64,000 nucleotides of DNA from positions 496,001-560,000 of the forward strand of contig NZ_CP045119.1 in the NCBI RefSeq assembly GCF_011492945.1. Direction: 5' to 3'. Position 1 is the stretch's first letter. Every line of letters begins with the position of its first letter. The notes under the pieces were generated by a model. That model searched no databases. It was not told the DNA's origin and saw only the letters and a program-made list of their open reading frames with translations. This document shows positions 1-11,577 of the stretch, piece by piece. The position numbers and the translations under genes are program-made. Source of the stretch: Rubrobacter tropicus (GTDB lineage: Bacteria > Actinomycetota > Rubrobacteria > Rubrobacterales > Rubrobacteraceae).

Positions 1-2599
1 GAAGCTCATCGACCCCAAGGTCAAGCTCGCAGGATGGGGTGAAAGCCAGATCGAGCGGGAGCACTACTTCGTGAAGGGCCGCGCCGTGACGGATGGCAGG
101 ATTTACCTCGTAGGTGAAGAGTCCCGTCGGCGAGAACCTCGCCGGGTCGACTACCTGCTCCGCTACAACGGCCAGATGATCGCCGTTCTCGAGGCGAAAG
201 ACGAGCGCCAAGCACCGGACGCCGGCTTGGAGCAGGCCAAGTCCTACGCCCGTCTGCTCGATGTACCCTTTGCCTACTCCTCAAACGGTCACGCCTTCGT
301 CGAGTTCGACCTGCAGGAGAATAAGAGCCGCGAGCTGGACGGCTTCCCCGCTCCAGACCCTCTCTGGAATCGATGGCAGGCGACGAGGAGTGATAGCGCA
401 GGAGCCGCAGACCTGGTCGCTGAACCTCGGACAGGATACGCGACCGATCCGCTGTTGCAGCCGTTCTGTCCGCCTTCGCGCTCCGGTAAGGAGCTAAGGT
501 ACTTCCAAGAGGTCGCGGCCCGACGCGTGATCGAGCGCGTTGTCCGAGGTCAGAGCCGCATCCTGCTCACCATGGCGACCGGGACCGGCAAGACGTTCAC
601 GGCTTTCCAGATCGCCTGGAAACTCAAGAAGAGCGGCTGGCTACGTAAGCCGATCCTGTTTATAGCCGACCGCAACGTCCTGCGCGATCAGGCGTACAAC
701 GCTTTTGCTCCGTTCGTGGACGGGCAGTCCGATCCTCGCGCCGTTATCGAGGGCGGACGGTTCAACGCCAATCGGGACCTGTACTTCGCGCTCTACCAGG
801 CGCTCGACGCCGAAGACGGCGGTGCCCCCCTCTTCAAGCGCATTCCTCGGGATTTCTTCGGTCTGATCGTCATAGACGAGTGCCACCGTTCGGGATTCGG
901 CAAGTGGAACGAGATCCTCCGCCACTTCCCCAACGCCGTCCAACTCGGCATGACGGCCACGCCGAAGCGGGACGACAACATAGATACCTATGCCTACTTC
1001 TGTTCGGAGGAGCCGGAAGTGTACGCGGACCCCGAGGACCCCTCGAAAGGGACTACTCGGCCGCCGGCCTATGCCTACAGCCTTGGACAGGGGATAGACG
1101 ACGGATTCCTGGCGACCTACAGAGTTCACAAGGTCAGGACGAGCGTGGACAGGGACGGTCTGCACATCGAGGACGCCCAGGTGCAGGGAGCGGAGATCTA
1201 CATACCCGAGAACGCCGACCTGCGCGACCTGTACAACACCTCGAGCTTCGAGCGCGAGATCACGCTGCCCGACCGCACGAAGGCGATGGTTGAGCACCTC
1301 GCCGGTCTCCTCCGGCGCTTCGATCCCATGGAGAAAACCATGGTGTTCTGCGTGGATATGGAGCACGCACGCCTTGCCGCACGACTGCTTCAGAACGAGT
1401 TCTCAGACCGTGGCCGTCCTGACTACGCGGTCCCCATAATCTCCGAGGAGGGGGAGGCATCCTCCTGGCTCGAGCGCTTCGCCGACCCCGACCGCGAATG
1501 GCCCGTGGTGGCGACGACCGCCGAGCTCCTCTCCACCGGGGTAGACGTGCCTTCTTGCCGCAACGTCGTGTTCATGAAGCCCATCGCCTCGCCGGTCCTG
1601 TTCAAGCAGATAGTCGGGCGCGGCTCTCGGGTCGACCCGACCACAGGCAAAGAGTGGTTCCGCATCATCGACTACGTCGGGGCCTCGCGGCTCTTCGACG
1701 AGTGGGACCGCCCGCCGGGCGAGCCGCCACCCGCCGTGGACGGACCGCGCACGAGCGTCCTTGAAGGCACCGTCCTCGACGCCGAGTCGGGCGCCCTGAT
1801 CGTGGGGGCGTCGGTGAGCGCGCGGGTCGCCGCCAACGAGCAGCAAGGTCCGGTTCGCACCGACGAGCACGGGCGCTTCCGCTTCGCCGACCTCCCGGCA
1901 GGGACTGTGCGTGTGTACGTGCGCGGGACGGGCTTCCGTCCCCGGGACGTGGGCGCGGAGACGGGGCCAGAAGTGACGGCGAGCATCACTGTCGAGCTCC
2001 GGCGGAAAGAGGCTTCGGCAGGAAAGATCAGAATCAGAGGGCTCGAGGTGACCATTGCCGACGAGGCGACGTTTTTCGTCGAGGCCACCGGGGAGCGGCT
2101 GACCCTGACCGAATACCTGGATTACACCCGAAGGAAGGTCAGGGGCTACGTCCCGGACTCCGCCAGATTGCATGAAGTCTGGGTCGATCAAGGGAAACGT
2201 GAAGAGTTCCTGCGCGAGCTGGAGGCCACGAGCATCGAGGTCGATGTACTGGCCGACGTCCTCGCCAAGCCGGAAGCCGATCGGTACGATCTACTGGCGC
2301 ACCTTGCGTTCGAGGGACCGATCATCACCCGCGGCGAGAGGGCCGAGGCTTTCGTAAACTACGAGCAAAACTTCATACAGAGCCACGACGAGCGGGCGCG
2401 CGAGGTGATCCTAGCCCTGCTGGATAAATACCGGCTCGCAGGCGTGGGAGAGATGACCGATCCCGACGTCTTCTCCCTCTCTCCGTTCAGGGAGATGGGC
2501 CGGATGCGGGGATCTGCTAAGCGGCTCGGCGGCGTCGAGGCGTTGAAGGAGACGCTAGACGAGATGCAGAAGCGGATCTACAAGAAGGAGATTGGATGA
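1..2599 (+). CDS. hsdR: Type I restriction enzyme, R (translocase/nuclease) subunit, 5' end missing
   Basis: ATP-dependent translocase and endonuclease subunit of a type I restriction-modification enzyme. The frame is open to base 2 and reads KLIDPKVKLAGWGESQIERE upstream of the first in-window GTG (71), so the N-terminus lies outside the window. Visible in order: a PD-(D/E)xK-type nuclease stretch (VLEAKDER, then QAKSYA, about 150-250), Walker A ATGTGKT (about 575), DEAH-type box IDECH (about 870), MTATPKR (about 950) and QIVGRGSR (about 1610). Positions about 1750-2010 encode an extra domain that reads like a carboxypeptidase regulatory-like beta sandwich (EGTVLDAESGALIVGASV, then DEHGRFRFADLPAGTVRVYV). 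An EcoEI-type C-terminal region follows. The TGA overlaps the hsdM ATG (ATGA). Family assignment is firm; the role of the inserted domain is unknown. Confidence 0.95.
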   Translation, partial: KLIDPKVKLAGWGESQIEREHYFVKGRAVTDGRIYLVGEESRRREPRRVDYLLRYNGQMIAVLEAKDERQAPDAGLEQAKSYARLLDVPFAYSSNGHAFVEFDLQENKSRELDGFPAPDPLWNRWQATRSDSAGAADLVAEPRTGYATDPLLQPFCPPSRSGKELRYFQEVAARRVIERVVRGQSRILLTMATGTGKTFTAFQIAWKLKKSGWLRKPILFIADRNVLRDQAYNAFAPFVDGQSDPRAVIEGGRFNANRDLYFALYQALDAEDGGAPLFKRIPRDFFGLIVIDECHRSGFGKWNEILRHFPNAVQLGMTATPKRDDNIDTYAYFCSEEPEVYADPEDPSKGTTRPPAYAYSLGQGIDDGFLATYRVHKVRTSVDRDGLHIEDAQVQGAEIYIPENADLRDLYNTSSFEREITLPDRTKAMVEHLAGLLRRFDPMEKTMVFCVDMEHARLAARLLQNEFSDRGRPDYAVPIISEEGEASSWLERFADPDREWPVVATTAELLSTGVDVPSCRNVVFMKPIASPVLFKQIVGRGSRVDPTTGKEWFRIIDYVGASRLFDEWDRPPGEPPPAVDGPRTSVLEGTVLDAESGALIVGASVSARVAANEQQGPVRTDEHGRFRFADLPAGTVRVYVRGTGFRPRDVGAETGPEVTASITVELRRKEASAGKIRIRGLEVTIADEATFFVEATGERLTLTEYLDYTRRKVRGYVPDSARLHEVWVDQGKREEFLRELEATSIEVDVLADVLAKPEADRYDLLAHLAFEGPIITRGERAEAFVNYEQNFIQSHDERAREVILALLDKYRLAGVGEMTDPDVFSLSPFREMGRMRGSAKRLGGVEALKETLDEMQKRIYKKEIG

Positions 2600-4110
2600 C
2601 CCTGGAGAAAGACCTCTGGCGTGCCTGCGACATCTTGCGCCGCGACAACAACTGCGGCGGGGTGATGGAGTACGTCGAGCACATCTCCTGGGTACTCTTC
2701 TTAAAGTTCCTCGACGAGCAGGAGAGCGAGTTCGAGACGCGCGCCAACTACGCCAGACGTCCGTACGAGCGCACCGTTGCTGACGAGTACCGTTGGGAGA
2801 AGTGGGTTGGCAAGGCGCTCGGGGAGCCGGTCGGCGAAGGGATGCGCACCGCACCGGAGTGGGACGGAGAGGAGTTGATGCGCTTCGTACGGGGTGAGCT
2901 TATCCCGCATCTAGCCTCGCTCTCCGGCTCGCCCGAACGCGAGGTTATCTCCGGTGTTTTTGGCGAGAGAAACGTAATCGTGTGCGCCTCGCCTTATAAT
3001 TTGAAAGACGTGCTAGGCATCGTGGACCGCATCAACTTCGAGAGCGAAGACGATGTCCACACCGTTTCACAGTTCTACGAGGGCCTCCTACGGCGGCTTG
3101 GGCAGGAGAACAAGGTCGCTGGCGAGTTCTACACGCCCCGGTCCGTGGTCCGCTTCCTGGTAGACATCGTAGACCCAAAGATCGGTGAGACGGTCTACGA
3201 TCCGGCGTGTGGGAGCTGCGGCTTCCTTGTCGAGGCCCACGAGCATATGCGTAAGCAAGAGCGGACCATAAAGGATCACCGTGTCCTGCAGGAGAAGACC
3301 TTCTACGGTCAAGAGAAGAAGCCTATTCCGGCGCTGCTGGGGTTGATGAACATGGTCCTGCATGGCGTTCGTACGCCGAGCGTACGTCGCCGCAACACCC
3401 TCGAAGAGAATGTGACCCGCGGAGTTTCCGAGCGGTTTGACGTTGTGCTCACGAATCCTCCGTTCGGCGGTACGGAGAATGTTCAGATCCAGAACAACTT
3501 TCCCGTGAGAGCTAATGCTACCGAGCTGCTATTCCTCCAGCACATTTCGAAAAAACTCCACCCTCGCAAAGGCTCTCGGTGCGGCATGGTTGTCCCCGAG
3601 GGCACTCTCTTTCGTGGGGGAGCGTTCGCCGCTGTGAAAAGGCAACTCCCCGAGGACTTCGACCTTCAGATGATCGTTAGTTTACCGTCAGGAGCCTTCG
3701 CCCCATACTCTGACGTAAAAACCGCCCTCCTGGTCTTCGAGCGCTCAGGCCCTACTCAAGAGGTCCTCTTCCACGAACTACCACTGCGCACGGGGTTGAA
3801 GAAGTTCAGTAAGGGTAATCCCCTGTCCGACGCCGATTTTGCCGAGGCCCGTGAGGCTTGGAAGTTATGGCAGCGCCACCGTCGGGATGAAGGCCCGCGG
3901 CCCGAAGCCACCTCGCGCACCTGGATCGAGTCGGCAGAAACCCTGGTGGCCCGTGGGTACGACTTGTCGGCGAAGAACCCTAACCGTCCTGAGGAAGAGA
4001 CGCCCCAAGCACTAGCCGACATTACGGCTTCCCTCCTCGAGAATAGTCGCCGTCTTCAAGAGATGGCTGCACGTCTCGACACGCTGGTTAATAGTAAGGA
4101 ACTTGTTTGA
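2596..4110 (+). CDS. hsdM: Type I RM DNA N6-adenine methyltransferase, M subunit
   Basis: Modification subunit that transfers a methyl group from S-adenosylmethionine to adenine within the HsdS-defined site. An N-terminal helical region of about 170 residues precedes the catalytic domain, as in HsdM_N/N6_Mtase proteins. The SAM-binding motif is at residues 202-210 and reads DPACGSCGF, where most relatives have DPxxGSGGF, so one motif glycine is a cysteine. The catalytic motif NPPF is at 287-290. The length of 504 residues is normal for HsdM. ATG at 2596 overlaps the hsdR stop by 4 nt and its own stop overlaps the hsdS TTG, so translation of the three subunits is probably coupled. Confidence 0.95.
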   Translation: MTLEKDLWRACDILRRDNNCGGVMEYVEHISWVLFLKFLDEQESEFETRANYARRPYERTVADEYRWEKWVGKALGEPVGEGMRTAPEWDGEELMRFVRGELIPHLASLSGSPEREVISGVFGERNVIVCASPYNLKDVLGIVDRINFESEDDVHTVSQFYEGLLRRLGQENKVAGEFYTPRSVVRFLVDIVDPKIGETVYDPACGSCGFLVEAHEHMRKQERTIKDHRVLQEKTFYGQEKKPIPALLGLMNMVLHGVRTPSVRRRNTLEENVTRGVSERFDVVLTNPPFGGTENVQIQNNFPVRANATELLFLQHISKKLHPRKGSRCGMVVPEGTLFRGGAFAAVKRQLPEDFDLQMIVSLPSGAFAPYSDVKTALLVFERSGPTQEVLFHELPLRTGLKKFSKGNPLSDADFAEAREAWKLWQRHRRDEGPRPEATSRTWIESAETLVARGYDLSAKNPNRPEEETPQALADITASLLENSRRLQEMAARLDTLVNSKELV

Positions 4111-5372
4111 CTACAGCGCGAGCAGCAATGCGAGCTACGCAAGGCCCCTCGGAGCTTCCCGAGGGCTGGGAATGGGCGCGGTTAGACGACGTGTGCCAGG
4201 TTAACCCGCGGAAGCCACAACTGAAGAGGGGTGACGAAGCTCCGACGTCCTTCTTACCGATGTCCGGGGTAGACGAGGTCGACGGGGTAGCTTCCCGTCT
4301 CGAAGTCCGCCCTTTTAAGGAAGTGGCTCGTGGGTTCACGTACTTTGAGGAAGAAGACGTGCTCTTCGCCAAGATCACTCCGTCTATGCAAAACGGTAAG
4401 AGCGCAGTGGCTCGGGGCCTGTTGGATGGCTTGGGGTTCGGGTCCACCGAATTTCACGTACTCCGTCCCGGTCCTCGCGTTACCGCCGATTGGGTTCATC
4501 GTTTCGTTCGGCGGTGGTCTTTTAGACAAGAAGCTAAGGAGCACTTCCGCGGCGCTGTTGGGCAGCAGCGGGTACCACGGGGGTTTCTTGAGGAACACCT
4601 TATACCCGTACCACCTACTATCGAGGTGCAAAATCGCATCGTCGCCCGCATTGAGGCGCTGCTCGTAGATGCGAAAGAAGCTCGCGCACTCCTCGAAACA
4701 ATGCGGCGCGATACCGATCGAGTCATGGACGCAGTGTTGGAGGAGGTTTTCGCTAGGCTGGATCAGGCTGGTTCAGACTCGAGGCTCTTAAAAGAAGTGT
4801 TACGTACAAAACCTCAGTACGGCACTTCTCAGAAGGCTTACGATGTCTTGCCTGGCACCCCGATCCTGCGTATGGGCAACATCATCAACGGTAGGATCTC
4901 CTTCGAGGATCTGAAGTATGTCGTGCTCGACCCTCGAGAAGAAGCCAAGTTCTTACTCCGCCGCGGGGATATCCTCTTCAACCGCACGAATAGCGCGAAA
5001 CTCGTCGGGAAGAGTGCCGTTTACGAAAGTTCCGAGGCTACCGTTTTCGCGTCTTTCCTGATCCGCTTGGTAGTCGATCCAACCCTAGCGAACCCTCACT
5101 ACGTCGTCGCCTACATCAACTCTGGACGGGGTCGAGCCTACATCAGGTCTCAAATGACGCGGGCTATAGGTCAGGTCAACGTGAACGCGACGAAGATCGC
5201 CGCAATGCCCATACCTATACCGAAACTGAGAACTCAAGAGCATATCGTTGCTCACCTCGAGTCTGTGCGGGTCGAGGTCGACGAAATACGTCGCTCCTTG
5301 AACCGAGATGCCACGCTGCTGAACAGGGTAGAGCAATCGGTGCTTGAAGACGCTTTTAGGGGAAAGCTGTAG
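4107..5372 (+). CDS. hsdS: Type I RM specificity subunit
   Basis: DNA-recognition subunit that sets the target for both cleavage and methylation. The 421-residue protein shows the usual two half-repeats: a first target-recognition domain (about residues 15-170) ending in a helical spacer (EVQNRIVARIEALLVDAKEA), and a second (about 225-385) ending in a similar helix (QEHIVAHLESVRVEVDEI). The start is TTG 4107, overlapping the hsdM TGA (TTGA). An internal ATG lies at 4128 and cannot be excluded. The hsdS stretch has visibly lower G+C than the genes right of 11 kb, as expected for rapidly exchanged specificity genes. The recognised sequence cannot be inferred. Confidence 0.93.
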   Translation: MTTARAAMRATQGPSELPEGWEWARLDDVCQVNPRKPQLKRGDEAPTSFLPMSGVDEVDGVASRLEVRPFKEVARGFTYFEEEDVLFAKITPSMQNGKSAVARGLLDGLGFGSTEFHVLRPGPRVTADWVHRFVRRWSFRQEAKEHFRGAVGQQRVPRGFLEEHLIPVPPTIEVQNRIVARIEALLVDAKEARALLETMRRDTDRVMDAVLEEVFARLDQAGSDSRLLKEVLRTKPQYGTSQKAYDVLPGTPILRMGNIINGRISFEDLKYVVLDPREEAKFLLRRGDILFNRTNSAKLVGKSAVYESSEATVFASFLIRLVVDPTLANPHYVVAYINSGRGRAYIRSQMTRAIGQVNVNATKIAAMPIPIPKLRTQEHIVAHLESVRVEVDEIRRSLNRDATLLNRVEQSVLEDAFRGKL

Positions 5373-5374
5373 GT

Positions 5375-7327
5375 ATGCCCGACGTACGGACGCAGCTTAA
5401 CCATGTCCGGGATTTGTTCCGTGGCGTGGGCATCGCAGACACTTTCGCAATCATCGAGAATGTGGCCGAACTCCTCCGGCTTGGCGATGCCTATCAGCCA
5501 CCAAGAGGCATGACGCAGCGTCAGACTCAGGAGGTCCGACAACTTCTTGAGGGGGCCGCTGACAAAGTTGACGGCGTCGGACCCCTATTTGACCGTCACC
5601 TACTGTTCCGGCTTTCGAAGATCCTTCCTGGAGGACGCTATCCTACTCCTAGGCATATCGTCTCGATGATATTCCGCATAGCGGAGGTCGAACCTTCACA
5701 TCGCCTGTGCGACCTAGCGTGTGGAAGCGGTGGATTCCTTGTGTGCCGGGGCATTACTGACGGAAACGTTGAACGTACGGTCGGCGTAGAGATCTCGCCG
5801 GAATGGGTGCGTATCGCTCGAACTAACGCGTACCTCCATGATGTACAAGCGCGCGTAGAGGCCGGTAACGCTCTCTACGTCTGCGGACCTAAAGGCGAGC
5901 TGGACGGTGAGACCTTCGATCGTATCCTGCTAAACCCGCCCTTCGGTGAGAAACTAGACGCTGGTCTCGCGAAGGAGGTCGTGGGATGGAATGTAGGGAG
6001 TCGTAGCGAAACCGTGTTCGCGGCCTTGGCTCTTAGCCGGCTAGCAGACGGAGGCCGAGCGGCGGTCCTGGTGCCCTCTGGGGTGTTGTCCGGTACCGGT
6101 GCGGGCGAGCGGGAATTGCGGAGACGATTGGTGGAGGAGCACGATGTCGAAGCCGTGGTCTCTTTGCCGAAAGACGCCTTTCAACCCTTCAGTTCCTTGC
6201 AGACTCACCTATTGCTCGTGCGCAAAAGGACGCAAAGTCAGGACGCGAGAACATGGTTCTTGCAGGTCGAGAGCGATGGCTATCCTTCAGGCCGCGGTCG
6301 AGACCTAACGATAGATCCCCCAAGTTTCGGCGACCTGCCGCTCATCGAGCGAGTCCTAACCGTGCGCGACGAAGAAGTTGAGGAGTCTCTGCCCGAAGAT
6401 AGCCCCCGCCTCGGTATAAGGTGGATGAGTCTCGGCGACGGTAACGTGCGCGGCGCAGTAGTCCAGGCTGTCGGTGCAAACGTAATCTCGTCGGCCGAAC
6501 GTTTTCCCGCTGTCGGAGACGAGGCTGCTTTCGTACTGCTGACGGTAGAGAGCATGTTCGGACAAGGCGGCGATCTCTTCTACGTCAAGGTATCGCTCGA
6601 CGGGGGGACAGCGGAGCCGCTAGAAGAAGACCCGCAACAACTTATTCAGAGGCTGTACAAGCCCAAGAGCACCGATCCGAACCCCGGAACTAGCTTGTTT
6701 TTCAAGCGAGCCGATCCCGTGCGAGCGGTGGCCTTCACTACGGGTGGACGTGCCTTAGGGGTAGCCATACCTAGTAGCTCCACAGGTCCTCCTCAGCACG
6801 AACTTAGGCCGAGTAGGTTTGTGGGGGGCGAAGAGGAGACGCACCACGCAGGTTCCCCTACGCAGCTTTTAAGCGACATCTACAAGAACCAGCGCTTGTT
6901 GGTCCGTCACGTAGACAACCTCCTGGGACGGCTGGAGTTGAGACCCATAGCGGGTCAAGAGGGGCCCGCGCCCCTGTTGGGAGATGCGGTTCCCTTCGGA
7001 CGGCTCTCTCCCGGACAGGAGGCCGTGTGGAGACGAGTGCGCGATAGGTTCGAGAACTTAGGGGACGAAGGTCAGGAGAAGGCGGCTTTGTTCACCCTTG
7101 AGGAGGTAGATGGGGTGGAACCTGCGACTGTGGCGTCGGACATAACAAGGTTGACCGTCGGGCTGCTAGAGCGTATGGGAATCGTCATGCCGGTGACCGT
7201 CACCGATCCGAGCACGGGGAATTCCGCTGCTTTCTACCGGCTCGTCACAGAGAAAGACCTCTGGTTGCTACCGCCTAAAGAGGACCCTCTCGGTGAAGAG
7301 GGTGTATCCGAGCAGGGAAACACATGA
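5375..7327 (+). CDS. Second N6-adenine DNA methylase with a long C-terminal extension
   Basis: Predicted SAM-dependent adenine methylase distinct from hsdM. Residues 113-121 read DLACGSGGF (motif I) and 187-190 NPPF (catalytic motif IV), followed by a region with VSLPKDAFQPFSSLQTHLL typical of HsdM-like methylases. The N-terminal helical part is short. From about residue 300 the protein continues for some 350 residues with no family I recognise. The last 100 residues (SPGQEAVWRRVRDRF..., then VASDITRLTVGLLERMGIV) look like a winged-helix fold. It starts 2 nt after hsdS, and its TGA overlaps the ATG of the ATPase gene. No recognition domain is obvious, so it may use the neighbouring HsdS or the winged helix for DNA contact (inference). 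Confidence 0.85.
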   Translation: MPDVRTQLNHVRDLFRGVGIADTFAIIENVAELLRLGDAYQPPRGMTQRQTQEVRQLLEGAADKVDGVGPLFDRHLLFRLSKILPGGRYPTPRHIVSMIFRIAEVEPSHRLCDLACGSGGFLVCRGITDGNVERTVGVEISPEWVRIARTNAYLHDVQARVEAGNALYVCGPKGELDGETFDRILLNPPFGEKLDAGLAKEVVGWNVGSRSETVFAALALSRLADGGRAAVLVPSGVLSGTGAGERELRRRLVEEHDVEAVVSLPKDAFQPFSSLQTHLLLVRKRTQSQDARTWFLQVESDGYPSGRGRDLTIDPPSFGDLPLIERVLTVRDEEVEESLPEDSPRLGIRWMSLGDGNVRGAVVQAVGANVISSAERFPAVGDEAAFVLLTVESMFGQGGDLFYVKVSLDGGTAEPLEEDPQQLIQRLYKPKSTDPNPGTSLFFKRADPVRAVAFTTGGRALGVAIPSSSTGPPQHELRPSRFVGGEEETHHAGSPTQLLSDIYKNQRLLVRHVDNLLGRLELRPIAGQEGPAPLLGDAVPFGRLSPGQEAVWRRVRDRFENLGDEGQEKAALFTLEEVDGVEPATVASDITRLTVGLLERMGIVMPVTVTDPSTGNSAAFYRLVTEKDLWLLPPKEDPLGEEGVSEQGNT

Positions 7328-8838
7328 GGCTCGAGCGTCTGTACATAGGCGATTACCGAGTCTTACGTGACCTCGAGATACATTTCGAACCACCTGAAGA
7401 GGTGACGCTTCCGGTCCTTGGACCCGACTATGCGCTCGACTTTCTCGTCGGTGTGAACGGCACGGGTAAGTCGACGGTCCTGCGCGCTTTGAGCGAAATC
7501 TTCCGCCGCATGGATGGGGACACAAAGGCCGCTGCGTTCCCGTTCGACATCTCGTACCGTTTGGCGTCCGGCGAAGGAGTTTCCGTTACAAACATCGATC
7601 CAGACACGCGGAAGGTATCGCTGGACTTCTGGCTCAGACGCCGAGGAGGGGAGGAGCGCGTAGGCAAAGTAGACGAGCGATACCTGCCTACGAGAATCGT
7701 CGCCTTCACGACCGGGAGCGAGGCGGAGTGGGAGATTTCAGAGACTACAGAGGACCCTGACCCAGACGCCGTGCGATTAGTACGGAGCATGACGGCCGAC
7801 GAGCGAGAAGTTAGAGAAATACCCGGTTTACCCGTCAACACGGGGGAGCCGGGCGAGGATCGTGCAAACCGACAGAACAGGTTATTGTTCATTCGGGCTT
7901 CTCAACTGACCTTGGTGACGCTGTGTGGCTTGCTGGCAGATCTTTCGAGGGAAGACCGGCGGCTCAGCGAGGTGCTTAGAGAGGCAAAGGTCGGAAGCTT
8001 CAAAGGGTTCTCGCTAAGGTTCCGTACGAACTTGCCCTCCACCGACCCCACCGACCACGCCTACGTCGAGGATCTGGCCAGGCACGCCACACGCGCCCTA
8101 CGTTTGGGCTCCGATCGTTTGCTAGTCTTCGATCTCGCAGAGCGCCCACAAGACTTCCCAAGTGACGTGCTTGAAGAATTCGATGGCGGCTTGTCACTCT
8201 TCGAGACTCTGGCTCGCCTCGCGACCCCTGCCGAAGACGGCCAAGCATCCTTACGCGAAGTGAACCTTTTCGTCGAGCGCTATGAGGCTGAAGAACGGGA
8301 GAACGAGCGGGGTGAAGCGCCGCTGATGCACCTCTTCGATTGGCTAAGTGACGGTGAGCGGAGCTTCGTGGGACGCATGTGCCTATTTTCGCTCCTGGGT
8401 GCCACCGAGGCACTTGTACTGCTCGACGAACCTGAGGTCCATTTTAATGATTACTGGAAGCGGCAGATCGTGAAGCTCATAGATGGTGCGATCGAGGATA
8501 GCGACAGTCATGTATTGATCACGACCCATTCCAGTATTGTGCTGACCGACGTTCCGCGTGAAGACATAGTGATCCTAAACCGCGGCGCCGGCTTTACTGA
8601 TGATTACTCTTTCCCCGGCATCAAGACCTTTGCCAGCGATCCCAGCGACGTCATGGTGCACGTGTTCGGGGCACCGCAGGCTACAGGGGCGGCGAGCGTA
8701 CAGCAGATCCAGGAAGCATTAGAACGGTCGCGTCGAGAACCTAATCAAGACGAGCTGAGATGGCTCTTCGATCGTACTGGCCCGGGTTACTGGAGCTACC
8801 GGATACGTCGAGAACTGGCGCGAATGGAAAACGAGTGA
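7324..8838 (+). CDS. ABC-like (AAA_21/PtuA-type) ATPase, putative defence protein
   Basis: Soluble P-loop ATPase of the RecF/SMC/OLD-like class used by many anti-phage systems. Walker A GVNGTGKST is at residues 43-51, an ABC signature-like segment WLSDGER near 340, Walker B LVLLDEPE near 365 and the switch histidine in TTHSS near 402. The central insertion (residues 60-330) has no recognised domain. There is no TOPRIM domain of the OLD/GajA type. ATG 7324 overlaps the upstream methylase stop (ATGA), and its own TGA overlaps a GTG that starts the HNH gene. An ATPase followed by an HNH nuclease is the Septu (PtuA/PtuB) arrangement; I infer a related role, here embedded in an RM operon. Confidence 0.85.
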   Translation: MRLERLYIGDYRVLRDLEIHFEPPEEVTLPVLGPDYALDFLVGVNGTGKSTVLRALSEIFRRMDGDTKAAAFPFDISYRLASGEGVSVTNIDPDTRKVSLDFWLRRRGGEERVGKVDERYLPTRIVAFTTGSEAEWEISETTEDPDPDAVRLVRSMTADEREVREIPGLPVNTGEPGEDRANRQNRLLFIRASQLTLVTLCGLLADLSREDRRLSEVLREAKVGSFKGFSLRFRTNLPSTDPTDHAYVEDLARHATRALRLGSDRLLVFDLAERPQDFPSDVLEEFDGGLSLFETLARLATPAEDGQASLREVNLFVERYEAEERENERGEAPLMHLFDWLSDGERSFVGRMCLFSLLGATEALVLLDEPEVHFNDYWKRQIVKLIDGAIEDSDSHVLITTHSSIVLTDVPREDIVILNRGAGFTDDYSFPGIKTFASDPSDVMVHVFGAPQATGAASVQQIQEALERSRREPNQDELRWLFDRTGPGYWSYRIRRELARMENE

Positions 8839-10148
8839 TTCACTGGGTTGCCCTCCCGAGGATAACCCGAAGACGTTTGACCGACGTGGTCGTACTCCAG
8901 ATGCTACTTCTCAGGTATGCGGCCTCTACAAGCGAATTGGACAGAACTGCTTGCGCCGGTTACATCGACCAATGCGACAGGTTCAGGGGACGCGGAGAGC
9001 GTATCGCAGGCTGGGTCTGGCAAGCTCCAGTAAGCAGGAAGGGGCTACTTGCCGAGTTTGCCAAAGGATCCATGGCTCGCAAGCGACTGTGGGTAGATAG
9101 GATGTGCAACGAGGTCGTTAACTTACTCCGGGGCCCGAACAGTGCCTTGAAGCTCACTCCTTACCGGGTGCGCAACCCGGAGAGCTGGCGGAGCGCCGGG
9201 GCTAAGTTTTTGCGTGGTTTCTACGACTCAGGACTTGGCGCCTCAACTTCCACATTTCCCGAGTATTTGTTCTCTGAACCGAGCGCTGAGCCTTTCGGGA
9301 GAGAGCAGTTTCTCAGCGCGTTCCTCACGGTAAATAGAGAGCTACGATTCTGCTCGGCGTGTGATGAGACAAAACACTACACAGTCTCCCGGACCGGTAA
9401 ACGCGCGTATATAGACCATTACTTCCCAAAGAGCTTGTACCCCCACCTCGCTTGCCATCCGTACAACCTGGTCCCCGTATGTTCATTCTGCAACGAGATA
9501 AAGCAAGATCGAGATCCTCTCCTAAGGAAGACTAGAAAAAGGCGAAGCAAACCGTCGCATATCTCGCTACCTTACCGTGGACAATCTGATTTGGGGTCCT
9601 GGACTTACCTTAAGGTAAGGCTTCTCGACACGTTGCCTCCTGCTGCGTTCGAGGAACTCAAACCGCAGGGAGCCAACTACCTAACGGACGGCATCGAGAC
9701 CTTCAGAGAGCTGTACGAGGTGCCCGACCGTTGGGACAAGCAAGTAGACTGTGTTGGTCCCTCGCTAGTTAGACATCTGTTCCAATTCTTGGACGCTCAC
9801 TTCGTCCCACGCGACGCCGGGCGGATATCAGTGGACTACATGGACTGGTTTTTGTCTCAGCTTATGGATTACCGGGGCAGGGAACCGTTCGCGTTCGCAA
9901 TGACATGGTGGGCTGCCGCGTTGGTTAACAAGGAACAAGTTGACACTGTCGCGCACGATGCGGAGCACAGCACTTCGCTCATGCTGCAGTTGCCAATACT
10001 CTTTGGGTACGATGAAAGGCCGAGACCTGCTCACTTCGAGGATCCAGATGAGTACGAGATCTCAGAAAACCTTCTTGAGGAAGACAACGTTCGCTCCGCT
10101 ATTGAAACGGCACGAAGCTTAAGGGGGGTGGCCGATACTGCAGCGTGA
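8835..10148 (+). CDS. HNH endonuclease, PtuB-like partner of the ATPase
   Basis: Predicted metal-dependent nuclease. The HNH core is CSAC (residue 173 on), IDHYFPK (193 on) and NLVPVCSFCNEIK (about 210-222): two Cys pairs flanking the DH catalytic element and the asparagine. I place the start at GTG 8835, which forms GTGA with the ATPase stop and matches the 4-nt overlaps elsewhere in this operon. A longer frame reaches back to 8760 inside the ATPase gene but would need an out-of-pattern start. At 437 residues it is longer than typical PtuB proteins. The extra 170 N-terminal and 210 C-terminal residues are unassigned and may carry targeting or partner contacts. It is the last gene of the operon and convergent with the next gene. 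Confidence 0.85.
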   Translation: MIHWVALPRITRRRLTDVVVLQMLLLRYAASTSELDRTACAGYIDQCDRFRGRGERIAGWVWQAPVSRKGLLAEFAKGSMARKRLWVDRMCNEVVNLLRGPNSALKLTPYRVRNPESWRSAGAKFLRGFYDSGLGASTSTFPEYLFSEPSAEPFGREQFLSAFLTVNRELRFCSACDETKHYTVSRTGKRAYIDHYFPKSLYPHLACHPYNLVPVCSFCNEIKQDRDPLLRKTRKRRSKPSHISLPYRGQSDLGSWTYLKVRLLDTLPPAAFEELKPQGANYLTDGIETFRELYEVPDRWDKQVDCVGPSLVRHLFQFLDAHFVPRDAGRISVDYMDWFLSQLMDYRGREPFAFAMTWWAAALVNKEQVDTVAHDAEHSTSLMLQLPILFGYDERPRPAHFEDPDEYEISENLLEEDNVRSAIETARSLRGVADTAA

Positions 10149-10175: not shown

Positions 10176-11054
10176 CTACAGTTCTGAGTCCTGATCGAGC
10201 TCCCTGCGTAGCAAGCCGGCCTTCACCGGGTGTCCGTTGTCTTTCAACCACCGCACGGTCTCTTGCGCCAGCTTGCGCAGCCGGTCCACCTCCTCTCTCA
10301 GGGCAAGTATCTGGTCGAATTCCTCGGACGCCTCCCGCCCACACCACTCCCTTACGAGGGCGTGAACCGGCTCGACCTTCCTCAGCCGCTCCTCGGCCCG
10401 CTCGCGGTAAGGAGCGCTGTCGACCCACCACGCGTGGGACGGGACGGGCCCGCCGGAGACCAGTTCCTGCCGCAGCTCGTCCTCCTCCTTCTGTATGCGG
10501 CCGAGGACCTTCTGCGGGAACCGTCGGCAGAGGTCCTTCGCCAGCTTCACCGCCGTTTGGAACGGGGCCCTGTACCATCCGAGCCGGTCCACAAAGGCGT
10601 AAGGCTCGTCGAGCATCGCATCTTTGTCCAAGCCGAGCCTGAGCGCCGCCGCATCCAGGTCCTGGACGAACAACAGGTCGTACTCTATGGCCCTGTATCC
10701 TAGGAAGATTTCCTCTTGAGGGCTAGAGTGCTCGGACAGCGCACCGAAGACCTCACCGGCAGCCTCCCACGTCACCTCGTCGGAGGCCTCCTCCGAGACC
10801 TCGACCGCCGCTAGCATTTGGCGCTCCTCTTCGAGGAAGGCCTCCGCTTCCTCCCACGGCGCGAGGAGTCGGATCTTCGGGACCCACTCCTCCAGGCCCT
10901 CGTACTCGCCATCGAGCCAGCGGACCCGCGCCTTGTTCGAGCGGGGCGGTCCTTCCTTGACCACCTCGACGGGCCGCACAGGCTCCCCGTACGCGCGCAC
11001 GCGAGCCCGGTAGGCGAAACGCTGCCCAACGCTATCGGCCCAATCGGATCCCAA
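10176..11054 (-). CDS. Hypothetical charged protein
   Basis: A 292-residue soluble protein that I do not recognise. The first 65 residues look like a small beta-rich domain (RVRWLDGEYEGLEEWVPKI). The rest is helical and rich in Glu, Arg and Leu, with a likely coiled coil near the C-terminus (FDQILALREEVDRLRKLAQE). No signal peptide or membrane segment is seen. The start is TTG 11054 with GGAGG 7 nt upstream on the minus strand. It converges with the HNH gene (27 nt apart) and lies between the defence operon and the tRNA-Arg, so it may be part of the same acquired island. Function unknown. Confidence 0.7.
   Translation of the reverse strand: MGSDWADSVGQRFAYRARVRAYGEPVRPVEVVKEGPPRSNKARVRWLDGEYEGLEEWVPKIRLLAPWEEAEAFLEEERQMLAAVEVSEEASDEVTWEAAGEVFGALSEHSSPQEEIFLGYRAIEYDLLFVQDLDAAALRLGLDKDAMLDEPYAFVDRLGWYRAPFQTAVKLAKDLCRRFPQKVLGRIQKEEDELRQELVSGGPVPSHAWWVDSAPYRERAEERLRKVEPVHALVREWCGREASEEFDQILALREEVDRLRKLAQETVRWLKDNGHPVKAGLLRRELDQDSEL

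Positions 11055-11500: not shown

Positions 11501-11577
<77 letters not shown>

What the first reader, a model, noticed from the sequence alone, without database searches (positions are those of the whole stretch)
7324..10148. Septu-like ATPase/HNH pair with an enlarged HNH partner
The ATPase keeps Walker A, signature, Walker B and switch His. The HNH protein keeps both Cys pairs and the DH motif but is about 437 residues, longer than typical PtuB, with unassigned N- and C-terminal parts. The start is fixed by a GTGA junction at 8835.
Basis: partly seen in the sequence, partly recalled or inferred. Interest (0 to 1): 0.55.

Follow-up and report, generated by a model that had tools for sequence, protein, structure and literature searches.

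The report
Restriction operon with docked Septu-like effector
The ATPase and HNH nuclease are the last two genes of a six-gene bacterial DNA-restriction operon, in which an extra methylase-like protein carries a small add-on domain that may tie the pair to the restriction machine as a built-in second weapon against viruses.

Summary
The pair is real and correctly placed, but it is not a free-standing Septu. It ends a six-gene operon: EcoAI-type R–M–S, a second HsdM-like protein (M2), ATPase, HNH. I found this arrangement, sometimes incomplete, in 14 further loci of Chloroflexota and Cyanobacteriota; of 376 genomes sampled from the host's phylum only the host has it. The ATPase is PtuA-like but far below the cut-off of the named restriction-associated family (TIGR04435: 99.6 against 300 bits). 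The HNH protein matches PtuB/PDC models only around its HNH core; its length is normal for this clade (352–683 aa). New here: M2 has an HsdM-like S-docking tail followed by a C-terminal winged-helix-like domain. In a related clade without M2 that domain sits at the end of S, again directly upstream of the ATPase gene. M2, ATPase and HNH co-diverge; S does not follow HNH. Three M2 loci lack an R gene in the operon, and two of these lost M2's catalytic motif, yet keep ATPase–HNH; other HsdR genes exist elsewhere in those genomes. Best reading: a type I methylase complex acts as platform or sensor for a latent Septu-like nuclease. New variant of a known kind; mechanism inferred, untested.

The parts
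1..2599 (+). HsdR (R), EcoAI/FtnUII family. Full gene is 876 aa and starts 32 bases upstream of the window; the ORF lister shows 71-2599 only.
   Evidence: NF046051 672 bits, cut-off 550; Pfam ResIII, EcoEI_R_C, HSDR_N; full ORF L106:5969-8599
2596..4110 (+). HsdM (M1), type I N6-adenine methylase with AGEF and NPPF motifs
   Evidence: PF02384 E 5e-59 and HsdM_N; motifs
4107..5372 (+). HsdS (S), 421 aa, no C-terminal extension
   Evidence: PF01420; 14 of 14 S proteins of this clade are 390-431 aa
5375..7327 (+). M2: second HsdM-like methylase, 650 aa, without HsdM_N, with a long C-terminal part
   Evidence: PF02384 at residues 86-303; model matches type I M subunits, best 7eew_A E 2e-13; conserved in the clade
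5933..5944 (+). M2 motif IV NPPF (residues 187-190)
   Evidence: NPPF in 12 of 14, APSF in L012 and L015
6824..6937 (+). M2 tail helix (residues about 484-521), related to the S-docking C-terminal tail of HsdM
   Evidence: hhalign with M1 tails: probability 77, E 2e-5; nine control stretches 0.1-1.9; long helix 495-521 in the model
6995..7276 (+). M2 C-terminal winged-helix-like domain (residues about 541-634), the proposed adapter
   Evidence: hhalign with the C-terminal extension of four related S proteins: probability 97, E 1e-10; seven control comparisons 0.1-3.0; helix-helix-helix-two strands in the model
7324..8838 (+). PtuA-like ABC-type ATPase, 504 aa
   Evidence: PF13304, PF13175; PDLC00293 119.7 bits; TIGR04435 99.6, below cut-off 300
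8835..10148 (+). HNH protein, 437 aa, GTG start in the GTGA overlap
   Evidence: PF01844 only sub-threshold, 13.6 against 21.4 bits
9351..9494 (+). HNH core, C173..N220
   Evidence: invariant Cys, His, Asn; core hits in PADLOC

Best explanation
This is a type I restriction-modification complex with a second, Septu-like effector built into its operon. Shown by sequence: the six-gene order, its recurrence, the HsdM-like tail of M2, the C-terminal domain shared by M2 and by S of a related clade, and the co-divergence of M2, ATPase and HNH. Inferred: M2 takes one of the two M places in an M1-S-M2 complex through its tail helix; its winged-helix domain sticks out and docks the PtuA-like ATPase, which holds the HNH nuclease. 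Inferred with less certainty: the ATPase-HNH pair is normally silent and is switched on when the complex is blocked or meets phage DNA it cannot cut, as PrrC is with EcoprrI, and the HNH then cuts DNA or tRNA.
For: Same arrangement in 14 further loci, of which 13 reach the HNH gene. ATPases of the M2 loci form one clade (96/95; 98% of bootstrap trees) next to three ATPases of loci with no M2. M2-ATPase r 0.89, M2-HNH 0.82, ATPase-HNH 0.84, against S-HNH 0.09 and M1-HNH 0.28, 12 loci. Tail homology. Shared domain, always in the gene directly upstream of the ATPase: 14 unbroken M2s and the broken one of L009, and four related S proteins, confirmed in a held-out Pantoea S (E 8e-7). In 400 Chloroflexota genomes the six with M2 are the six with the clade's HNH. 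ATPase-HNH is kept where the operon has no R (L006 decayed, L012, L015), where M2 has lost NPPF (L012, L015) and M1 too (L012). Known parallels: PrrC in a type I locus (PMC3874165, PMC12707154, passages); PtuAB cut tRNA-Tyr (PMC11555353, PMC13096335, passages).
Against: No experiment and no complex model; docking is inferred. M1-M2 distances also correlate (r 0.68) and M1-ATPase 0.49, so M2 is not clearly tied to ATPase-HNH alone. The M2-domain profile finds only one of the four S extensions by hmmsearch (L071, E 4e-5), and the held-out Pantoea S is found by the S profile, not by the M2 profile. S extensions of more distant loci (7 sets aside L005; plus Priestia and Sphingobium) do not match this domain. 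In the HNH tree the M2 loci are not one clade. Other HsdR genes exist in the genomes of L006, L012 and L015, so R may act in trans. Of the six Chloroflexota genomes, four contributed to the search alignments.
Confidence: 0.45

Rival explanations
1. Alternative restriction arm: the M-S complex recognises unmethylated target DNA and ATPase-HNH cuts it, beside R or in its place. Methylation protects the host.
For: No R gene found near M-S-ATPase-HNH in four of 11 loci without M2 (L016, L074, L075, L077) nor in the annotated stretch of Priestia L113; R decayed in L006 with M1 and M2 motifs intact. PtuAB of one Septu was reported to cut DNA (told in PMC11555353, passages).
Against: Most M2 loci keep R (11 of 15, one cut by a contig end). 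L012 has lost NPPF in both M1 and M2, so self-protection by its own methylases is unlikely there. HsdR-type genes exist elsewhere in the three genomes tested of these four loci and in those of L006, L012, L015.
Confidence: 0.25
2. Two independent systems in one operon: a type I system with a spare methylase and a divergent Septu that shares transcription and selection only.
For: L076 has an ATPase-HNH pair with no type I genes in its 16 kb, and a true Septu sits beside M and S in Vibrio L016. Defence genes cluster anyway.
Against: Fixed position directly downstream of the protein with the added domain; co-divergence with M2 but not with S; M2 kept after loss of its catalytic motif.
Confidence: 0.2
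3. M2 is an ordinary second modification subunit, as in the m6A/m4C systems of the PacII kind, and its last domain serves DNA binding.
For: M2 has the MTase fold, motif I in 14 of 14 and NPPF in 12 of 14, and an HsdM-like tail.
Against: PacII-type M2 has AAEF and NPPY (PMC9613975, passages); here the pocket motifs are GG[RG]Y and NPPF. APSF in two loci. The same last domain occurs on S next to the ATPase gene.
Confidence: 0.1

Closest known systems
Septu (PtuA/PtuB) and retron I-A PtuAB
   Same: ATPase then HNH gene; Walker, signature and switch motifs; Cys4 HNH core; weak overall fold match of the HNH model to two retron PtuB-type nucleases.
   Different: PtuA score 120 and PtuB 32 bits against 664 and 324 for a true Septu; HNH protein with longer N- and C-terminal parts; embedded in a type I operon with M2; no reverse transcriptase among the ORFs around the pair.
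TIGR04435 restriction system-associated AAA ATPase loci
   Same: Type I M-S(-R) followed by ATPase and HNH; L072 and L074 pass the cut-off (724, 482).
   Different: The window and L069, L015 score 97-106 against 300; so do the nearest loci without M2 (L066, L067, L068, L071: 110-133). Those have no M2, and the S extension of the true TIGR04435 loci tested does not match the M2 domain.
EcoprrI with PrrC; PARIS
   Same: An ATPase-nuclease guard linked to a restriction system (as told in PMC3874165, PMC12707154 and PMC12839542, passages).
   Different: PrrC is one chain with an anticodon nuclease, PARIS uses a TOPRIM nuclease; here ATPase and HNH are separate chains and M2 is added.
Non-canonical type I systems with M1 and M2 (PacII)
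   Same: Two different M proteins with one S.
   Different: PacII M2 carries NPPY/AAEF and makes m4C; this M2 carries NPPF, lacks HsdM_N and has the added last domain.
OLD-ABC/HNH dyads in BREX and RM-like systems (PMC12839542, passages; Krishnan et al. 2020 cited there, not held)
   Same: ABC ATPase-HNH pair as auxiliary effector of a modification system.
   Different: No M2 adapter or domain exchange with S was seen in the passages; the 2020 paper could not be checked.

Membership tests
Type I restriction-modification | R, M and S subunits in one operon | tested here: met
   R passes NF046051 (672 against 550), M by N6_Mtase plus HsdM_N, S by Methylase_S; overlapping genes
Septu (PtuAB) | ATPase matching PtuA over its length | tested here: inconclusive
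   PDLC00293 119.7 bits in two stretches; true Septu L016 664; NF041760 48 against 500
Septu (PtuAB) | HNH protein matching PtuB beyond the HNH core | tested here: inconclusive
   PtuB models match only residues 164-241 at best; profile comparison with smaller and TIGR04435-type HNH proteins aligns 118-304, probability 99.3; structural second look Z 5.3-5.8
Septu (PtuAB) | Two-gene autonomous unit | tested here: not met
   Six-gene operon here and in relatives; autonomy of function not testable
TIGR04435 | Score above the curated cut-off of 300 bits | tested here: not met
   99.6 bits; relatives L069 106, L015 97
PacII-type M1/M2 m4C systems | NPPY and AAEF in the second M subunit | tested here: not met
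   NPPF and GGRY in the window M2; motifs from PMC9613975, passages
MADS | MAD2 methylase and MAD3 ATPase above cut-offs | tested here: not met
   MAD2 model 77 (M1) and 64 (M2) against 720; MAD3 18 against 420
Retron I-A | Reverse transcriptase and ncRNA with PtuAB | tested here: not met
   The genes around the pair are type I genes upstream and an unassigned ORF downstream; no ncRNA search was made
PrrC-type guard of a type I system | Release on inhibition of the restriction enzyme | not testable with these tools
   needs phage or Ocr-type challenge

The most novel reading that the evidence does not exclude
A type I methylase complex has been turned into a DNA-bound sensor: M2 is an adapter, in some lineages a dead methylase, whose winged-helix domain, exchanged with S during evolution, couples DNA recognition or restriction failure to a latent Septu-like ATPase-HNH killer that works even without the operon's own R.
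Probability: 0.28. Interest if true: 0.78.

Novelty: new variant of a known kind. Interest (0 to 1): 0.58.

Why it matters
ATPase-nuclease pairs often sit beside restriction systems, but how they sense trouble is open in most cases. A portable domain found on M2 or on S, each time directly upstream of the ATPase gene, gives a concrete and testable candidate for the physical link. If true, it shows a modular route by which restriction enzymes gain a second, possibly suicidal, effector, and a use for methylase subunits that no longer methylate.

Tried and rejected
Free-standing Septu: set aside because of the operon and the weak model scores. m4C-type M2: motifs do not fit. MADS and retron: cut-offs missed. 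A phage origin: the viral-contig scan gave two short ATPase-HNH loci only (L017, L018; HNH 294 and 308 aa). A truncated R in the window: rejected, the gene starts 32 bases upstream of the window; my notebook entry is superseded. The clade's own R profile found nothing convincing in G306 and G309, but HSDR_N finds two HsdR-type ORFs in each, one in G306 about 5 kb past the HNH gene on the other strand.

HNH model: mean pLDDT 69, Foldseek found nothing at E 0.001 or better. In the second look the top row is an unrelated pyocin complex chain (Z 6.3), and all Z are under 8. Sequence search of the HNH profile against PDB gave nothing significant: helical designs rank above 9n69_F, E 0.026. In the same second look no other HNH family stood out, which shows nothing.

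Rows dropped: L011 was left out of the M1-tail set. Loci: regions taken for 8 of 44 matching genomes besides the L007 genome already held, 5 of 10, four being held already. Of 14 plasmid records with an ATPase hit I looked at five. L009 and L070 are broken and were left out of several alignments. Literature: searches found no paper on the M2 arrangement or the shared domain in this library; 74 was swamped by unrelated MADS papers, and most subscription papers are not held.

Full report
What is there. They are genes five and six of an operon on the + strand: R (876 aa, starting 32 bases before the window, to 2599), M1 2596-4110, S 4107-5372, M2 5375-7327, ATPase 7324-8838, HNH 8835-10148. R passes the curated cut-off for EcoAI-type R subunits (672 against 550). 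M2 has an N6-methylase domain, no HsdM_N hit and about 350 further residues without a Pfam hit.

How far it recurs. Herpetosiphon aurantiacus plasmid pHAU02 has the same six genes in the same order. A scan of one genome per species with the ATPase profile gave 11 loci. One is that plasmid again, nine more are of this kind, and one is a Vibrio locus with a true Septu pair. Four more came from samples of 400 and 386 genomes of the two phyla. Together that is 14 loci besides the window: ten from Chloroflexota and four from Cyanobacteriota (phylum by record title and my knowledge, or by the sample drawn). Completeness: HNH in 13 of 14 (L014 ends inside the ATPase gene); M2 unbroken in 13 of 14 (L009 is cut by an IS1595-type transposase ORF); R in 10 of 14 (partial in L014; absent from the loci L006, L009, L012, L015, a decayed remnant in L006). 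In the host's phylum only the host has a full-length match among 376 genomes; three others match over the HNH core only. In Ktedonobacteria (47 genomes) only the two known genomes have a full-length M2.

Relatives without M2. Eleven loci have M-S-ATPase-HNH, seven of them with R (L005 has a broken S). The ATPase tree puts the M2 loci on one branch (96/95, 98% of bootstrap trees) beside L066, L067 and L071 (fork 92/87), with L068 on a long branch outside. The HNH tree does not hold the M2 loci together (three changes, 0% of bootstrap trees) and is poorly resolved. The HNH profiles of the two groups align over 342 columns (probability 100).

The adapter domain. S proteins of M2 loci are 390-431 aa (14 of 14). 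Those of loci without M2 are 503-583 aa (10 of 10). The tail of S in L066, L067, L068 and L071 matches the last domain of M2 (hhalign probability 97, E 1e-10 as a pairwise value). Seven control comparisons gave 0.1-3.0. By hmmsearch the M2-domain profile finds only L071 among the four S tails (E 4e-5). As a held-out case the Pantoea agglomerans plasmid locus (helicase-M-S-ATPase-HNH) has the domain in S by the S profile (E 8e-7) and by the joint profile (E 2e-4), not by the M2 profile. Priestia and Sphingobium S proteins do not. S tails of L016, L074, L075, L077 and of L072, L073 do not match either. So the shared domain is a feature of this clade and its sisters, not of all such loci.

M2 as a subunit. 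The M2 model is closest to type I M subunits (7eew_A, E 2e-13; 122 PDB matches at E 0.001 or better). Residues 484-521 match the tail of M1 (probability 77, E 2e-5; nine control stretches 0.1-1.9). In PacII the tails of M1 and M2 are needed to assemble with S (PMC9613975, passages). Motif I is kept in 14 of 14 M2s, NPPF in 12 of 14; L012 and L015 have APSF. M1 has NPPF in 12 of 13; L012 has HPPL. Distances over 12 loci: M2-ATPase r 0.89, ATPase-HNH 0.84, M2-HNH 0.82, M1-M2 0.68, M1-S 0.65, M1-ATPase 0.49, M2-S 0.45, M1-HNH 0.28, ATPase-S 0.27, S-HNH 0.09. In 400 Chloroflexota genomes six have M2 at E 1e-60 and the same six have the clade's HNH. Four of the six were in the alignments, and one search scored only two candidates per genome.

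The effector. Against curated models the ATPase is PtuA-like but outside the named families. The HNH protein has only core matches. Its model is of middling quality (pLDDT 69). Two retron PtuB-type chains align along most of their length (184 and 167 residues, Z 5.8 and 5.3), which fits a widened PtuB but does not prove it. Published PtuAB act on tRNA-Tyr in retron Eco7 and in a Septu of an E. coli clinical strain, and on DNA in another Septu (PMC11555353, PMC13096335, passages), so the target here is open.

R-free loci. L012 and L015 have no R in the operon and L006 a decayed one. The clade's R profile finds nothing convincing in the genomes of L012 and L015. HSDR_N does find other HsdR-type ORFs there, one of them near the L012 operon on the other strand. 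So ATPase-HNH is kept without a co-encoded R, but R in trans is possible. The same holds for L016, L074 and L075.

Reading. A type I complex with M2 as adapter and a latent Septu-like effector fits these facts best (0.45). Within it, a PrrC-like guard fits L012 better than direct restriction, since neither methylase there looks active; direct restriction remains possible elsewhere (0.25). Known parts: type I systems, ATPase-HNH pairs beside them (TIGR04435; OLD-ABC/HNH dyads, PMC12839542, passages) and guards (PrrC, PARIS; PMC12707154, passages). Apparently new, within the searches listed: the M2 subunit with its added domain, the domain's presence on S in sister loci, and the wear of catalytic motifs in two loci.

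Noticed in passing
L106:4148-5776 (about 190 bases before R, outside the window): 542-aa protein with GmrSD_N (PF03235, 103 bits), a type IV restriction relative next to the operon.
   Followed up: partly
L106:1741-2905: Fic_N and Fic domains on two overlapping ORFs in different frames, perhaps a split Fic gene.
   Followed up: no
window 71-2599: A carboxypeptidase-regulatory-like domain (PF13620) lies inside R, between the helicase part and the EcoEI_R_C domain.
   Followed up: no
window 10176-11054, minus strand: 292-aa ORF downstream of the operon with no convincing family hit.
   Followed up: partly
window 11501-11577, minus strand: tRNA-Arg about 1.35 kb past the operon, possibly an island edge; G+C falls to 0.54 in the HNH region.
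   Followed up: no
L076 (ATPase 3785-5743, HNH 2797-3792, minus): Related ATPase-HNH pair with no type I genes detected in 16 kb.
   Followed up: no
L009:7370-8275 and L070:4960-5952: Transposase ORFs interrupt M2 and the ATPase gene respectively.
   Followed up: partly
L115:5391-6314: Sphingobium TIGR04435-type locus with a GIY-YIG nuclease gene between M and S.
   Followed up: no
L007:11689-13740: HNH protein of 683 aa with about 250 extra C-terminal residues.
   Followed up: no
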